Source: Brucella pseudogrignonensis | GTDB lineage: Bacteria > Pseudomonadota > Alphaproteobacteria > Rhizobiales > Rhizobiaceae | Assembly (NCBI RefSeq): GCF_032190615.1 | Contig: NZ_JAVLAT010000001.1 | Location: forward strand, 1,372,501 to 1,436,500 | Direction: 5' to 3' | DNA length: 64,000 nucleotides | Shown here: positions 2,845 to 47,455 of the stretch, in pieces | Layout: each line of letters begins with the position of its first letter | Position numbering within the stretch: the stretch's first letter is position 1 | Translations under genes and position numbers: made by a program | The notes under the pieces: model-generated | What the model was told of the DNA's origin: nothing | The model's input: the letters and a program-made list of their open reading frames with translations, nothing else | The model's database searches: none

Positions 2845-4160
2845 TGACCGATTCAACATTGAATGCCGGCACTGCTGTGGCAAAGCCTGAGCGCCGTGAT
2901 ATCGGTATCAAGCGTCGCTACGCTGCTGAACGTCGCTTCCGTCTCTATGGCATTATTGCCATTGCGATTGGTGTGTTCTTCCTTTGCGCGCTTTTGTTCT
3001 CTGTTATTTCCAAGGGCTACACGGCTTTCGGACAGACGACGATCTATCTGCCCGTTAAACTTGAAGCGAGCGTCATCGATCCGGGCAACAAGCTTGCAAC
3101 GGATCCGAATGTGCTGATCACCGCCAACTATCCGCTTCTGGTGCGTAATGCGCTGGCTGAAAAATTAGGCGTTTCAACAAGTAACCGCGCAGAAATGCGT
3201 GAAGTCGGGCGTTTCTTCTCGGACGGTGTGCGCGTTCAGTTGCGCCAGATGGTGATGGATAACCCATCGCTGATCGGAACGACGCAGACGGTTCCTGTTC
3301 TTGCCGCTGCTGATATTGATTCTGCCTATAAGGGCCAGATCGATATTTCGGTGCCGGAAGCAAACCGCAAGGTTTCCGATCGCCAGTTTGCCTGGATCAA
3401 GACATTGACCGATGAAGGTATTATGCGTGAGGCTTTCAACTGGGGCTTGTTCACCAATGGTGCTTCCAGCCGTCCTGAAACCTCGGGTCTTGGTGTTGCG
3501 CTGGTCGGTTCTTTCTACATGATGATGATCGTGCTGGTTCTGGCCCTGCCTATCGGTGTAGCCGCTTCGATTTATCTTGAAGAATATGCCAAGAAGAACC
3601 GCCTTACGGATATTATCGAAGTCAACATCAACAATCTTGCTGCTGTTCCGTCGATTGTGTTCGGTTTGCTTGGCCTTGCTGTCTTCATCAACTTCTTCAA
3701 CCTGCCGCGTTCAGCTTCGCTTGTCGGTGGCCTGGTGCTGACGCTGATGACGCTTCCAACCATCATCATCGCGACACGTTCCGCTCTTCGCGCGGTTCCA
3801 CCGTCGATCCGGGCAGCAGCACTGGGGCTTGGTGCATCGAAAACACAGATGGTGTTTCATCATGTGTTGCCGCTCGCAGCTCCCGGTATTCTGACCGGAA
3901 CGATTATCGGTCTTGCGCAGGCATTGGGTGAAACTGCACCGCTGCTTCTGATTGGTATGGTGGCCTTCGTTGCCAATATGCCTGCAACCCCGATGGACCC
4001 TGCTACGGCTCTGCCAGTGCAGATTTTCATGTGGGCCAATGAAGCCGAACGTGCCTTTGTGGAACGGACATCAGGCGCTATTATCGTCCTGCTCCTGTTC
4101 CTTGCGGTCATGAACATCTTAGCAATTATTCTGCGCCGCCGCTTTGAGCGCCGCTGGTAA
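2844..4160 (+). CDS. pstA: Phosphate ABC transporter permease PstA
   Basis: Second permease subunit of the phosphate importer, pairing with PstC. 438 residues with an N-terminal membrane segment (about residues 35-60), a long periplasmic insert (about 60-205) and a C-terminal permease domain. The coupling-loop sequence [25 protein letters not shown] is visible around residues 325-350. The N-terminal extension is again of the alphaproteobacterial kind. The start overlaps the pstC stop (TAATG), and pstB follows after 11 bases. Confidence 0.95.
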
Positions 4161-43187: not shown

Positions 43188-44447
43188 ATGAAGGCTGCAT
43201 TCTGGAAACGATGCCTGACAACGGCTCTTTTTATCGCTGCATCGCTTTGCTCAACGTCTTCTTATGCTGCTCCCTCCAAAGCGCAAATCGAAAGCCAGTA
43301 TCGCAACTGGATTGAAAAGGACCTTTGGCCGGAAGCCAAAGCCGCAGGCGTTTCGCGTCCGGTTTTCGAGCAGGCTTTTGCAGGCGTCACCATTAATTGG
43401 AAACTGCCCGATCTGGTTATTCCCGGCGAAAAGCCGTCGGGACCAAAAGAGCAGAAGCAGGCCGAATTCGGCGCCCCTGGCAAATATTTCAATGCGAAGA
43501 CCGTTGGCAGCGTCACGAGTGGCGGCAAGGTGCGGCTTGGTCAGAATGCAAGTCTGCTCAAAAGCATTGAGCAACGCTATGGCGTTCCGGGCCGCATTGT
43601 TGTGGCGATATGGGGCCGTGAGTCGGGCTTTGGTACCGTCAAAATTCCCTACAACGCGTTTGAAGTGCTGGGCACCAAGGCCTTCATGGCAACGCGCAAG
43701 GATATGTTTCGCAAGGAGCTGATTGCAGCGCTTCAAATCACATCGCGCGATTACATCGCCAATGGTTCGATGAAAAGTTCGTGGGCGGGTGCGCTGGGCC
43801 AGCCGCAGTTCATGCCGACATCTTATCTCAAACATGCTGTCGATTTTGACGGTGATGGCAAGCGCGACATCTGGAATTCGGTTCCCGATACGCTGGCATC
43901 GATTGCCAATTATCTCAAAATCCATGGCTGGCAGGCAGGCCGGGACTGGGGCTATGAGGTTAATGTCCCTCAGAATGTCTCATGCTCGCTGGAAGGGCCG
44001 GATCAGGGCAAGACCTTCGCTGAATGGTCAAAGCTTGGCATCACTCGCACTAACGGCAAGGCATTTCCTGCCAGTGAGATGCGTGGCGAAGGCTTTCTGC
44101 TTATGCCCGCTGGTCGCTATGGCCCGGCCTTTATCGTGACGCCGAATTTCTACGTCATCAAAGATTACAATATGAGCGATCTCTATGCGCTGTTCATCGG
44201 CCATATTGGTGACAGCATTGCCTATGGCGCGGGTGATTTTCAGACGCAGTGGGGCAATGTCGGCACCATGTATCGCTCTGATATTCTAGCGATGCAAAAG
44301 CGCATGCAGGCGCAGGGCTACGATATTGGCAAGGCTGATGGTTTGCCGGGCTTCAAAACTCGTCGTTCTATTGGTCTTTGGCAATCAAAAAATGGAATGA
44401 CGCCAACATGCTTTACATCATCTAATTTAATTACTATTATACATTAA
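43188..44447 (+). CDS. Lytic murein transglycosylase (MltB/SLT_2 family) with altered C-terminus
   Basis: 419 residues with a signal peptide (about 1-27). The SLT_2 catalytic domain (about 30-340) has Glu145 in WGRESGFG as the acid for cutting MurNAc-GlcNAc bonds, then SWAGALGQPQFMPTSYL. The start of a C-terminal peptidoglycan-binding domain follows (about 360-410; LAMQKRMQAQGYDIGKADGLPG). The last residues (CFTSSNLITIIH) turn AT-rich and the gene stops early compared with the second tail copy at 45103-45270, which runs on to IYSLKIRAGVR. The 3' end therefore appears replaced or degraded by AT-rich DNA. Confidence 0.9.
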   Translation: MKAAFWKRCLTTALFIAASLCSTSSYAAPSKAQIESQYRNWIEKDLWPEAKAAGVSRPVFEQAFAGVTINWKLPDLVIPGEKPSGPKEQKQAEFGAPGKYFNAKTVGSVTSGGKVRLGQNASLLKSIEQRYGVPGRIVVAIWGRESGFGTVKIPYNAFEVLGTKAFMATRKDMFRKELIAALQITSRDYIANGSMKSSWAGALGQPQFMPTSYLKHAVDFDGDGKRDIWNSVPDTLASIANYLKIHGWQAGRDWGYEVNVPQNVSCSLEGPDQGKTFAEWSKLGITRTNGKAFPASEMRGEGFLLMPAGRYGPAFIVTPNFYVIKDYNMSDLYALFIGHIGDSIAYGAGDFQTQWGNVGTMYRSDILAMQKRMQAQGYDIGKADGLPGFKTRRSIGLWQSKNGMTPTCFTSSNLITIIH

Positions 44448-44498
44448 TAAATTTTATTTCATTTTTATATTATATTATATTTTTATTATAGGTTAATT

Positions 44499-45095
44499 AT
44501 GGATAAAGTTATTAATATTTCTGGATACACAGAGTATTTTTTTCATGTAAGAATTATTACAGGTGTATTTGTGAGTCTTTGTATATCTAAGGTGCTTTCA
44601 TCATTTGTTTTTTATATACAGTCAGTAAGCGAGAAAAGAATAAATATTACGCATTTTTTATGGTTGTTAACATGCAGTATATTTGTTGTAGATTGGTGGT
44701 GGGATGTTCTTGCTTGGGGTGAATTGATAAATAATTCTTATTTTTCTTACTTGTTTATTATTTTATATGCATTCAGTTTTTATTTTTTGTCTTCGTTGGT
44801 TTCTCCCGACTACGTTCACTTTCACGAAGATTTTGATTCATATTTTCTAAAAATACGTAAGTGGTTTTTTATGATTTTTATCATAAATCAAATATCTTAC
44901 GATTTACTACATTTTATAATTATAAATAATGCTTACTGGTTTAGCTTAGATATCGTACTAACAGCAATTATGGCTACTATACTTTTTATATCAACTAAAT
45001 TTTGCAGTTCAATTTCTCAAAAATTTACTGCTGTGTTTATTTTTATAATTCAAGTATTTTTGATTTTTGATGACCTTACCGTCGAACATTATTAA
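44499..45095 (+). CDS. AT-rich orphan membrane protein inside the transglycosylase tail duplication
   Basis: 198 residues, rich in Phe, Ile, Tyr and Trp, with about five or six hydrophobic segments (around 15-38, 50-70, 80-100, 120-143, 147-170 and 174-192). It contains VDWWWDVLAWGEL and a loop with DYVHFHEDFDSYF. I do not recognise the family. The DNA is extremely AT-rich, unlike all neighbours. No strong ribosome site was found, although GGTTAATT precedes the ATG. It lies exactly between the two copies of the transglycosylase tail, so it probably entered with that rearrangement. Confidence 0.6.
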   Translation: MDKVINISGYTEYFFHVRIITGVFVSLCISKVLSSFVFYIQSVSEKRINITHFLWLLTCSIFVVDWWWDVLAWGELINNSYFSYLFIILYAFSFYFLSSLVSPDYVHFHEDFDSYFLKIRKWFFMIFIINQISYDLLHFIIINNAYWFSLDIVLTAIMATILFISTKFCSSISQKFTAVFIFIIQVFLIFDDLTVEHY

Positions 45096-45102
45096 TTTCA
45101 CC

Positions 45103-45270
45103 AAAGAGTTCGCGGACCATTCCAATGGAAACGCGGATGGCCTGCCTGGTTTCAGAACCCGTTGTTCCACTGGTCTGTGGCAATCCAAAAATGGACTGCC
45201 TCTAACCTGTTTCACCCAGCAGGAACTGGCGAAAATCTATTCGCTGAAAATCCGCGCCGGAGTGAGATAA
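45103..45270 (+). pseudogene. Second, diverged copy of the transglycosylase C-terminal tail
   Basis: The reading frame encodes NADGLPGFRTRCSTGLWQSK and then NGLPLTCFTQQELAKIYSLK, matching the end of the gene at 43188-44447. Aligning 44331-44416 with 45130-45215 gives 66 identical bases of 86 by hand count, with no gaps. No catalytic domain or believable start is attached, so it is a remnant 3' end or an unused alternative tail. Its G+C resembles the core genome, unlike the 650 bases before it. Confidence 0.75.
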
Positions 45271-45288
45271 TCGCTCCGGCGCACAATT

Positions 45289-46479
45289 TTAAGCCGCTTT
45301 TGTCAGCATGCCATGTGGGTCGAGCACGAATTTCTTCGCCACGCCCTGATCAAAGCTTTCATAGCCTTGCGGCGCATCTTCCAGCGAAATCACCTGCGCA
45401 TTGACGATGTCTGCAATGTTCAGCCGACCGTGCAGAATAGCCTGCATGAGTTGGCGGTTATATTTCACTACCGGCGTCTGGCCAGTATGGAAAGACTGCG
45501 CCTTTGCCCAGCCAAGACCAAAGCGCAGTGACAGGCTTCCCTGTTTGGCGGCGCTGTCAACTGCGCCCGGATCTTCCGTCACATACAATCCGGGAATGCC
45601 GATGGAGCCTGCCGGGCGGGTAATTTCCATCATCTGGTTGAGAACGATAGCCGGTTGTTCACCGCCGCTGTGACCACGGGCTTCAAAGCCGACAGCATCG
45701 ATAGCGCTATCCACTTCGTTGCTGCCGGTCACTTCTGCAATCATGTCACCGAGACGATCACTTGCCGAAAGATCAATCGGCTCGAAACCAACCTTGCGGG
45801 CATGTTCCAGCCGTTCCTTGTTGAAATCGCCAACCATGACGACTGCCGCACCTAAAATGCGCGCAGAGGCAGCGGCAGCAAGCCCAACTGGTCCGGCGCC
45901 TGCCACATAGACAATGGAGCCGACGCCAACACCCGCTTTCACTGCGCCATGAAAGCCGGTGGGCAGAATATCCGACAGCATGGTGAGGTCGCGGATTTTT
46001 TCAATGGCCTGCTCTCGGTCGGGGAACTTCAGCAGATTGAAATCGGCATAAGGCACCATGACATAGCGCGCTTGCCCACCGATCCAGCCGCCCATATCCA
46101 CATAGCCATAGGCACCGCCCGCGCGTGATGGGTTGACCGTCAGGCACACGCCGGTGTCCTGCGACTTGCAGCAGCGGCAGCGCCCACAGGCGACATTGAA
46201 CGGCACCGAAACGATGTCGCCCACTTCGAGCATTTCGACATCGCTACCTTTCTCAATCACTTCACCGGTGATTTCGTGGCCAAGCACAAGACCGGGCATG
46301 GCAGTGGTGCGACCGCGCACCATGTGCTGATCAGACCCGCAGATATTGGTGGTGATCACTTTCAGGATGACAGCGTGGTCCAGCTTACGCCCGTCGGGTG
46401 CGCTCAGCACCGGATCATCAATATCACGAACTTCGACTTTACCCGGGCGCATGTACACAACGCCTCTATTCCTGCTCAT
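45289..46479 (-). CDS. fdhA: Glutathione-independent formaldehyde dehydrogenase (zinc alcohol dehydrogenase family)
   Basis: Oxidises formaldehyde to formate with tightly bound NAD. 396 residues. Catalytic zinc ligands lie in TNICGSDQHMVRG and GHEITGEVIEKG; structural zinc ligands are in CGRCRCCKSQDTGVC. The nucleotide-binding stretch is VAGAGPVGLAAAASARILGA. The long C-terminal part with DFGVGQ-type inserts fits the Pseudomonas FdhA branch; I judge this from overall similarity. It follows the LysR gene in the same direction after 58 bases and may be read with it. Confidence 0.9.
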   Translation of the reverse strand: MSRNRGVVYMRPGKVEVRDIDDPVLSAPDGRKLDHAVILKVITTNICGSDQHMVRGRTTAMPGLVLGHEITGEVIEKGSDVEMLEVGDIVSVPFNVACGRCRCCKSQDTGVCLTVNPSRAGGAYGYVDMGGWIGGQARYVMVPYADFNLLKFPDREQAIEKIRDLTMLSDILPTGFHGAVKAGVGVGSIVYVAGAGPVGLAAAASARILGAAVVMVGDFNKERLEHARKVGFEPIDLSASDRLGDMIAEVTGSNEVDSAIDAVGFEARGHSGGEQPAIVLNQMMEITRPAGSIGIPGLYVTEDPGAVDSAAKQGSLSLRFGLGWAKAQSFHTGQTPVVKYNRQLMQAILHGRLNIADIVNAQVISLEDAPQGYESFDQGVAKKFVLDPHGMLTKAA

Positions 46480-46537: not shown

Positions 46538-47455
46538 TTAATGGTCGAGGAGTTGTTCTGTGCGCGACATGTCCGGTTCGCGGATCAGCATGTTAGCGAA
46601 AGATGTAAGCGCTTTAGTCTGATAGCGGTCATTATGCGAAAGCATCAAAAACTGGCGTTGAGGCAATGCAAAATTGGCTTTGACCAATGTGCCCGCCGCG
46701 AGATGGGGTGCAGCCACCAGTTCCGAGATCGCAGTAACATAATTGCCGGAAAGCACGGCAGAGCAGATCGCTTCATTGGAAGGAAGTTCAAGCGCAATGT
46801 TCAGACGCGCCGGATCATAGCCTGCGACGCGTGCCGCATCTTCGAACACGCTGCGCGTGCCTGACCCATGTTCGCGCAATATCCACTGGCCGCTAAACAA
46901 CGAATCCCAGGTGAGCTTTTCAGCATTGCGCCATGGATGATCAGGCCCTGTGACAACGATAAGCTGGTCTGTACCAACTTTGCGAAGGGAAAGTGCCGGT
47001 GCCTGTACCGCACCTTCCACAAGCCCTATATCGGCTAAACCGGCCTCAGTTGCTTGTGTCACGCTTTCGGTATTGCCGAGCGTCAGCCGCAAATAGATCA
47101 TTGGGTAGGCTGCATGAAACTGTGCCAGATAGGGCGGCAGCCAATAGCTCGCAATCGTCTGGCTGGCATGAATGGTAAGAATGCCACGTTTGCCACTGCC
47201 AAGTTCCGACAGCATACGCTCAGCGGATTGCGCCCGGGCAAGTGTCGCGCGGGCTTCATCCAGAAACATGCGGCCATCGCCGGTTAGCTCTATGCGCCGT
47301 CCGATCCGGTTGAAAAGCATCGCACTATAGCGATCTTCCAGTGTGCGAATGGCCGAACTCACCGCCGATGGCGTGAGATTGAGCGCCTCCGACGCGCGGG
47401 TCAGATGCTCTCGCTCGGCCACTTCGATGAAAATACGCAGTTGTTCCAGTGTCAT
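46538..47455 (-). CDS. LysR-family regulator, divergent from yeiH
   Basis: 305 residues: N-terminal winged helix (1 to about 60; LRIFIEVAEREHLTRASEALNLTPSAVSSAIRTLE) and a C-terminal effector domain (about 90-295). The YeiE/CysB-like branch is suggested by TIHASQTIASYWLPPYLAQF. It is divergent from a YeiH family gene, the usual partner of YeiE, which in enterobacteria senses sulfite. A palindrome at 47467-47481 lies 12 bases upstream of its start. Confidence 0.9.
   Translation of the reverse strand: MTLEQLRIFIEVAEREHLTRASEALNLTPSAVSSAIRTLEDRYSAMLFNRIGRRIELTGDGRMFLDEARATLARAQSAERMLSELGSGKRGILTIHASQTIASYWLPPYLAQFHAAYPMIYLRLTLGNTESVTQATEAGLADIGLVEGAVQAPALSLRKVGTDQLIVVTGPDHPWRNAEKLTWDSLFSGQWILREHGSGTRSVFEDAARVAGYDPARLNIALELPSNEAICSAVLSGNYVTAISELVAAPHLAAGTLVKANFALPQRQFLMLSHNDRYQTKALTSFANMLIREPDMSRTEQLLDH

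What the first reader, a model, noticed from the sequence alone, without database searches (positions are those of the whole stretch)
44331..45270. Transglycosylase tail duplicated around an AT-rich membrane protein gene
Seen: the C-terminal coding segment of the lytic transglycosylase (44331-44416) recurs at 45130-45215 with 66 of 86 bases identical. Between them lies about 700 bases of very AT-rich DNA with one gene for a polytopic membrane protein. The first tail ends in AT-rich codons and the second is normal in composition. The copies are too diverged for a simple recent duplication. Inference: foreign DNA carrying its own transglycosylase tail plus cargo replaced the 3' end and left the old tail behind, as seen with cassette exchange at the 3' ends of polymorphic toxin or Rhs genes. 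The cargo could be an accessory or protective protein for the altered enzyme. This is the best candidate here for an undescribed arrangement.
Basis: partly seen in the sequence, partly recalled or inferred. Interest (0 to 1): 0.75.

Follow-up and report, generated by a model that had tools for sequence, protein, structure and literature searches.

The report
Enzyme gene end swapped beside membrane-protein gene
A bacterial cell-wall enzyme gene is followed by a second, dead copy of its own end, apparently left behind when an AT-rich piece with a small, unstudied membrane-protein gene was joined to it; some related bacteria have similar extra genes at the same place.

Summary
Bases 44331-44416 and 45130-45215 match at 66 of 86 positions; the next best place in the window reaches 44 of 86. 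The first copy is the working end of an MltB-type lytic transglycosylase of ordinary length. The second is a dead remnant: out of frame and without a motif kept in 80 of 80 related loci. Between them lies an intact six-helix membrane-protein gene.

In 35 genomes of the genus the slot after this enzyme gene holds a gene of the same membrane-protein family in 5, another protein in 2 and an inverted-repeat element in 1. In the three AT-richest cases the enzyme's last codons turn AT-rich at the same codon. Gene-end exchange with a displaced old end is supported. The Rhs/toxin parallel and the 'partner of the enzyme' idea are not: the swapped end is short and conserved, and family members (1,146 profile hits) sat in unrelated places where inspected, including viral contigs. 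The predicted fold is closest to TMEM175 potassium channels, but sequence tests of membership fail. Mechanism and direction of the exchange are inferred.

The parts
43188..44447 (+). MltB-type lytic murein transglycosylase gene, 419 aa, working copy (SLT_2 at residues 39-342, PG_binding_1 at 364-408)
   Evidence: ORF; Pfam E 2.8e-95 and 2.6e-05; TIGR02283 MltB_2 357.7 bits, cut-off 248.45
44327..44416 (+). first copy of the 3' segment, in frame, still part of the enzyme
44418..44447 (+). AT-rich last nine codons (SSNLITIIH) and stop, in place of the usual QPEL-type end, same length
44448..44498 (+). AT-rich spacer; no terminator-like site found, promoter-like matches present
44499..45095 (+). 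six-helix membrane protein, 198 aa, 26% G+C; family without a model in the libraries searched; predicted TMEM175-like fold
45096..45125 (.). right junction sequence of unknown origin
   Evidence: no second copy found in the own genome
45126..45253 (+). displaced, degenerate remnant of a transglycosylase gene end
45254..45282 (+). GC-rich hairpin, the old 3' hairpin of the enzyme gene, most like B. grignonensis (L004) and B. pituitosa (L005)
45289..46479 (-). zinc alcohol dehydrogenase-like gene, right neighbour of the slot in near relatives
46538..47455 (-). LysR-type regulator gene (named by eye), right neighbour of the slot in other relatives

Best explanation
The 3' end of this MltB-type gene is the left edge of a variable slot. 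A cassette made of an alternative version of the enzyme's last codons, an AT-rich spacer and a membrane-protein gene became joined to the enzyme gene. Most likely it recombined from a related cassette-bearing chromosome, by homology inside the enzyme gene on the left and by an illegitimate join on the right, into a chromosome that had the plain end. The recipient's own end was pushed about 800 bases downstream, lost its function and decayed; its old hairpin now follows the new gene. The enzyme keeps its full length and its peptidoglycan-binding segment, so its activity is probably unchanged, and the membrane protein is an independent passenger, read either by read-through from the enzyme gene or from a promoter of its own in the AT-rich spacer, and possibly silenced by MucR. 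The passenger is probably a small multi-helix inner-membrane protein with a TMEM175-like fold, of a family that also rides in phage-like contigs. Shown: both copies, the remnant's decay, the intact passenger under selection, the recurrent slot and the shared boundary. Inferred: route and direction of transfer, mode of expression, silencing, membrane location and any channel or phage-exclusion role.
For: Of 35 genus genomes, 27 have no family gene and no other insert found in the slot; G005/L054, the closest by this enzyme (97% aa), is among them. A family gene fills the slot in 5 (G000, G018, G021, G013, G012). Codons after Cys-Phe-[Thr/Pro] are 15, 23 and 22% G+C in G000, G018 and G021 against 41-78% in the other 32; in G018 and G021 third positions just before are normal (56 and 81%), so the edge is sharp there. 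That the three altered ends fall on the carriers of the three AT-richest passengers has a chance of 1.5e-4 (grouping chosen after seeing the data, kinship ignored). The remnant has lost a motif kept in 80 of 80. The passenger is under purifying selection: dN/dS 0.11 for G012-G013 and 0.19 for G000-G018, and three homologues of 74-79% identity from unnamed contigs are full length. No tyrosine-integrase match lies in the window.
Against: No donor with the same tail plus passenger was found. The left breakpoint is not resolved: identity to G005 is 90-92% over the first 999 bases of the gene, 88-89% in the next two blocks and 79% only over the last 77 bases compared, a segment in which other pairs fall too. 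G018 and G021 have the AT-rich end and passenger but no remnant, and G012 and G013 have the passenger with an ordinary enzyme end, so end exchange is not needed to host it. In five Phyllobacteriaceae loci a family member lies between the same flanking genes, so long residence with repeated loss is possible. The remnant and hairpin resemble L005 and L004 more than the closest relative. In the window the third positions of the first copy are themselves AT-rich (30%, the lowest of 35), so its left edge is less sharp. dN/dS for G000-G021 is 0.49, and dS was saturated or undefined in several pairs.
Confidence: 0.55

Rival explanations
1. Reverse direction: the lineage already carried enzyme plus passenger, and later a stretch from a passenger-less relative (enzyme end, hairpin, dehydrogenase gene) was recombined in on the right, with an illegitimate join just after the passenger gene. 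The second tail is then the foreign one.
For: The hairpin stretch after the remnant is 89% and 87% identical to L004 and L005 (47 bases) against 76% to the closest relative L054 (45 bases), and the remnant is closest to L005 (81%). A family gene between the same neighbours in five Phyllobacteriaceae loci makes a resident passenger plausible.
Against: The dehydrogenase gene downstream is not clearly closer to L004 or L005 than to L054 (88, 87 and 89%; sliding windows). The remnant is decayed, so its affinities are weak.
Confidence: 0.22
2. Gene-end integration by a site-specific recombinase, as for prophage e14 in icd: the element supplied a new end for the enzyme and the old end was displaced. 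The element has since shrunk to one gene.
For: The geometry fits (enzyme completed by element-side codons, displaced native end at the other edge), and the left boundary falls at the same codon in three genomes.
Against: No Phage_integrase match within the window (13 matches in the genome, 12 over the cut-off, none inside the window's coordinates; serine recombinases not searched for) and one sizeable ORF in the insert. No remnant at the right edge in G018, G021, G013 or G012. Right edges differ: in G018 the dehydrogenase end looks altered too (read by eye).
Confidence: 0.1
3. Tandem duplication of the enzyme's 3' end, followed by insertion of the membrane-protein gene between the copies.
For: Two tandem-oriented copies exist.
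Against: The copies differ at 20 of 86 positions while the first still matches the eight nearest relatives compared at 78-87%; two unlinked events are needed; four relatives have a family gene at the same edge without a second tail.
Confidence: 0.08
4. The passenger is an accessory or protective partner of the altered enzyme.
For: It lies directly after the enzyme gene in 5 of 35 genus genomes and directly after it in one Phyllobacterium (L028).
Against: The enzyme's catalytic domain and length are ordinary. In the same genome two other members lie next to folD/proC-like and leuB-like genes (read by eye); on the five annotated plasmid records inspected the neighbours vary (transporters, thioesterase, AAA ATPase); others lie among phage structural genes. 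30 of 35 genus genomes have the enzyme without a member in the slot.
Confidence: 0.05

Closest known systems
Orphan Rhs-CT modules (displaced 3' gene fragments; PMC3967940, passages seen, parts of the abstract among them)
   Same: A main gene with its current end, followed by another gene, followed by a displaced fragment of an older end without start signals.
   Different: Rhs ends are toxin domains with immunity genes and the orphan can be reactivated; here the end is a short conserved peptidoglycan-binding segment, no toxin or immunity domain was found, and the remnant is decayed.
Prophage e14 in icd of E. coli (PMC4759930, passages seen)
   Same: A foreign element supplies a slightly different 3' end for a housekeeping gene; e14 excision restores the other end; enzyme activity is the same with either end.
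   Different: e14 is a lambdoid prophage recombining at 11-bp direct repeats; here the insert has one sizeable gene and no recombinase was found.
Homology-facilitated illegitimate recombination (PMC6382021, passages seen, part of the abstract among them)
   Same: Foreign DNA anchored by homology on one side and joined illegitimately on the other would give one crossover in the enzyme gene and an arbitrary right join.
   Different: Inferred here from the product only; DNA uptake by this organism was not examined.
TMEM175 potassium channels (PF06736; 5vre, 6hd8/6swr; PMC7176437, passages seen)
   Same: About 200 residues (bacterial forms), six helices, first-ranked structural match by both aligners.
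   Different: No PF06736 match, no FSD motif at the start of helix 1, no profile-profile similarity.
Phage inner-membrane exclusion proteins such as P22 SieA (PMC10883804, start of abstract in a listing, and passages)
   Same: Small inner-membrane protein carried by a phage.
   Different: SieA has three predicted transmembrane segments and no relationship was shown; no exclusion activity has been tested for this family here.

Membership tests
MltB-type lytic murein transglycosylase | SLT_2 / MltB_2 domain above curated cut-offs | tested here: met
   SLT_2 319.3 bits, cut-off 24.3; TIGR02283 357.7 bits, cut-off 248.45
Rhs / polymorphic toxin end exchange | exchanged C-terminal segment is a toxin domain with an adjacent immunity gene | tested here: not met
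   no toxin or immunity family in what was scanned; the exchanged end is the PG_binding_1 terminus
Rhs / polymorphic toxin end exchange | displaced end fragment downstream of the main gene | tested here: met
   (geometry only)
Integrase-type gene-end element (e14/icd like) | element carries or lies near its site-specific recombinase | tested here: not met
   no Phage_integrase match within the 64-kb window; no other sizeable ORF in the insert. Serine recombinases were not searched for
Integrase-type gene-end element (e14/icd like) | common core sequence at both edges | tested here: inconclusive
   90-nt diverged repeat in the window; no enzyme-end remnant at the right edge of the four other family-gene inserts
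TMEM175 channel | PF06736 match | tested here: not met
   (no hit for three members); PF06736 in 3 of 100 genomes, 0 of 35 in G000-G034, all 35 of which carry the window's family
TMEM175 channel | FSD motif at the start of helix 1, with conserved Trp and His in helix 2 | tested here: not met
   motif from PMC7176437; no FSD in helix 1 of alignments A3 and A4 (by eye); hhalign probability 0.35% (the TMEM175 side had 3 sequences only, so a weak test)
TMEM175 channel | six-helix fold of the TMEM175 subunit | tested here: inconclusive
TMEM175 channel | tetrameric potassium-selective pore | not testable with these tools
   needs a multimer model or an assay
Superinfection-exclusion moron | gene carried among phage structural genes | tested here: met
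   homologues, not the window gene: in L173 between tail-terminator and tape-measure genes on the opposite strand; in L176 a tail-terminator gene follows. The INPHARED phage collection gave no match with the window protein
Superinfection-exclusion moron | blocks infection by other phages | not testable with these tools
   needs plaque assays; no PADLOC or PHROGs family matched the members scanned

The most novel reading that the evidence does not exclude
The 198-residue protein belongs to a large family without a model in the libraries searched, of TMEM175-fold membrane channels that travel as single-gene cassettes and phage morons. One preferred landing place is the end of the MltB-type gene, where the incoming cassette rewrites the enzyme's last codons at a fixed codon and displaces the old end: a toxin-free counterpart of gene-end cassette exchange that needs no recombinase of its own.
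Probability: 0.18. Interest if true: 0.65.

Novelty: new variant of a known kind. Interest (0 to 1): 0.42.

Why it matters
Displaced gene ends are known (from my own knowledge and the papers cited) mainly from toxin loci and integrase targets. Here the same geometry appears at a housekeeping cell-wall enzyme, with no tyrosine recombinase found in the window and an enzyme end of ordinary length, and the boundary recurs in three species genomes. The locus also points to a membrane-protein family with 1,146 profile hits and no matching Pfam, NCBIfam, PADLOC or PHROGs model for the members scanned, which occurs in chromosomes, plasmids and viral contigs and may share the fold of a non-canonical potassium channel. 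If that fold assignment holds, the family would be a test case for how phage-borne or mobile channel-like proteins act.

Tried and rejected
Rejected: (1) a simple recent tandem duplication (copies too diverged). (2) Decayed insert without a protein (dN/dS, full-length homologues). (3) AT drift alone: third positions before the boundary are normal in G018 and G021, so the edge is sharp there; drift may have added to the window's own first copy. (4) Cargo as partner of the enzyme (contexts inspected). (5) TMEM175 membership by sequence. (6) Known defence, phage or toxin family for the two cargo types: nothing above a cut-off or at the limits used; Pfam gave sub-cut-off matches only (IL32, E 0.089, for the window protein; F420H2_quin_red, E 0.067, for L013's ORF).

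Led nowhere: origin of the right-junction bases (in the own genome only the locus itself and one weak 31-base match to the passenger's end); the phage collection (no match); structure of the second cargo type (mean pLDDT 42, not used further); the viral structure library (no E under 0.001); solved structures by sequence (none). The tree has very long branches and uneven composition; the place of L011 is unsure. dS was saturated or undefined in several pairs. 'Not in print' is not claimed: the paper searches were (one search failed), and none was aimed at the family by name, since I know of none.

Rows dropped or partial: the second enzyme pieces of G001 and G006 (L163, L164) were left out; both genomes are of lower quality and their enzyme gene appears in two pieces. 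In one search two minus-strand loci (L124, L142) were read on the wrong strand; that output was discarded and repeated correctly. The tree used 19 of the 120 proteins listed and, of the matches, only the 30 given as loci (plus L124, L139 and L022); A4 holds 49 of the 120 plus the window protein. Of 22 plasmid records with a match, 7 were inspected, 2 of them without annotation.
Full report
Observation. The repeat is as described: 66 of 86 identical bases, next best place in the window 44 of 86; the repeat finder extends it to 90 nt, 77%. The enzyme gene (43188-44447) is an MltB-type lytic transglycosylase with a C-terminal PG_binding_1 segment. The 679 bases between the first repeat and the end of the membrane-protein gene are 24% G+C, the window 53%.

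Which end works. The window's enzyme has 419 residues; L054 and L001-L007, the eight nearest loci by this enzyme among the named ones, have 417-419 (whose lengths include the stop). The first copy is in frame and keeps the conserved core. Its last nine residues (SSNLITIIH) keep the length and roughly the hydrophobic pattern of the usual end (such as QPELVKSIR). The second copy has no start of its own, is out of frame in its end, and has lost TRRS[IL]GxWQ, which 80 of 80 related loci keep. It is followed by a strong hairpin that sits at the same place, right after the enzyme's stop, in B. grignonensis (L004) and B. pituitosa (L005). It is thus a displaced, decayed enzyme end with its old 3' region.

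The slot in relatives. One scan of named genomes gave 80 loci (the best 80 of 399). The 34 same-genus genomes returned plus the own genome (G000-G034) all have an enzyme match (35 of 35; in G001 and G006 in two pieces) and all carry at least one member of the membrane-protein family (35 of 35). In the slot after the enzyme: a family member in 5 of 35 (G000, G018, G021, G013, G012); a different protein of about 250 residues in 2 of 35 (G015; two tandem copies in G027); a roughly 270-base element with 37-nt inverted repeats in 1 of 35 (G031); no insert found in 27 of 35, of which 26 have the dehydrogenase or LysR gene at once and G025 showed neither.

The boundary. Codons after the conserved Cys-Phe-[Thr/Pro] are 15, 23 and 22% G+C in G000, G018 and G021, 41-78% in the other 32. 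In G018 and G021 the third positions just upstream are normal (56 and 81%), so composition changes sharply at one codon in two of three; in the window they are the lowest of the 35 (30%, next 37%). The two other family-gene carriers (G012, G013; passenger 48 and 41% G+C) have ordinary enzyme ends. Only the window has a remnant behind the passenger: local alignments of three native ends to the right flanks (55-119 bases) of the four other carriers scored within the range of 200 shuffles, while the window control scored 35-44 against shuffled maxima of 15-16.

Long residence or repeated arrival. In 7 of the 80 loci a family member lies within the fetched flanks, each time downstream on the same strand; about 0.3 would be expected by chance at two genes per 4.5 Mb (the loci are related, so this is only a guide). 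Five of these are Phyllobacteriaceae loci where it lies between the enzyme and LysR genes, in 4 of 5 after one or two other genes that I read as cation-efflux genes by eye, not by a family search. In the tree those five fall in one group (94/84) with the family member found throughout the genus (in G000 next to a proC-like gene), whereas the slot members of G000, G018, G013 and G012 form a distant clade with P0002-P0004 (100/97), and G021's member joins a third line. Support between long branches is doubtful, so the tree does not decide between an old resident gene that speeded up and repeated arrivals.

Mechanism of the exchange. Most likely a cassette-bearing enzyme end was recombined into a plain allele, with homology on the left and an illegitimate join on the right. 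That reaction type is documented in transformable bacteria (PMC6382021, passages). Identity of the window to G005 is 90-92% in three blocks covering the first 999 bases of the gene, 88-89% in the next two blocks and 79% over 44332-44408; G018 is 86-94% identical to its nearest kin (G008, G033) in the earlier blocks and 84% in the last. This fits a breakpoint near the end, but other pairs fall there too (G005-G002 83%), so it is weak. The opposite direction is a live rival, because the hairpin and remnant resemble L004 and L005. An e14/icd-like integration (PMC4759930, passages) has the right geometry but no integrase match lies in the window.

The passenger. A single-sequence search gave 6 proteins, one of them the window's own; a profile search gave 1,146 at E up to 1e-5 (120 listed; none of the 120 has a precomputed Pfam domain, and the names shown are hypothetical, uncharacterised or transmembrane protein or a locus name). 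No model matched above a cut-off or at the limits used for the members scanned: three with Pfam, two with NCBIfam and PADLOC, four with PHROGs. dN/dS is 0.11 (G012-G013), 0.19 (G000-G018, dS saturated) and 0.49 (G000-G021). Plasmid members (22 records, all under 60% identity) have varied neighbours in the five annotated records inspected. The INPHARED phage collection gave no match with the window protein. The IMG/VR scan gave four contigs with a member: in L173 the gene lies on the opposite strand between a tail-terminator and a tape-measure gene, with major-head and head-protease genes further on; in L176 a tail-terminator gene follows. L175 resembles them by eye only; L174 has a large protein nearby whose third-best PHROG is a DarB-like antirestriction family. 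The predicted structure (pLDDT 83, pTM 0.80, six long helices) is closest to TMEM175, but PF06736, motif and profile comparison fail (the last with only 3 TMEM175 sequences), so I call it TMEM175-like in fold at most. A channel, a phage-exclusion protein, or both, remain inferences.

Expression. No terminator-like site was found between the enzyme and the passenger on their strand (the same scan also misses the old hairpin, so it is a weak negative), and the spacer folds weakly (z -1.4). Read-through from the enzyme gene is therefore plausible. But promoter-like matches on the same strand occur at 44412-44473 (10 in the region against 4.9 in shuffles), so the passenger may have its own promoter. 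MucR represses AT-rich foreign genes in the alphaproteobacterium Sinorhizobium fredii (PMC8857273, abstract) and is described as H-NS-like in Brucella (starts of abstracts), so the passenger may be silenced under some conditions. None of this was tested.

Verdict. Real and unusual in detail, explicable by known processes. Interest 0.42: the shared codon boundary and the phage-carried, TMEM175-like family without a model are the parts a specialist would follow.

Noticed in passing
L013:5410-6150 (B. haematophila) and L167:2504-3271, 3361-4149 (G027): A second cargo type in the same slot: a protein of 246-262 residues with few relatives (2 found in the large protein search, one of them a shorter version from B. 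haematophila itself), in two diverged tandem copies in G027. No family matched above a cut-off; the fold prediction failed.
   Followed up: partly
L152:2795-3071 (G031, B. gallinifaecis L003): A small insert in the same slot bounded by 37-nt inverted repeats 89% complementary, like a miniature transposable element.
   Followed up: no
L124 / L168 (G018), right edge of the insert: The C-terminal end of the neighbouring dehydrogenase gene also looks altered where the insert meets it (read by eye), so both flanking genes may have changed ends.
   Followed up: no
L166:5427-6023 and L165:5965-6567 (own genome, contig C2): Two further members of the same membrane-protein family, one next to a leuB-like gene and one next to a proC-like gene (named by eye); the latter type is found throughout the genus.
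   Followed up: partly
L048 (JAHREI010000001.1): A record titled Bacillus subtilis carries an enzyme locus that looks like Pseudochrobactrum (same tail and length), so the title is probably wrong.
   Followed up: no
L081 (Aeromonas salmonicida plasmid pBY3): A distant family member sits on a conjugative plasmid near tetR(Y)/tet(Y); described only.
   Followed up: no
L024, L025 (Phyllobacteriaceae loci): Two tandem genes resembling cation-efflux proteins, read by eye, lie between the enzyme and the family member, another sign that this interval gains and loses genes.
   Followed up: no
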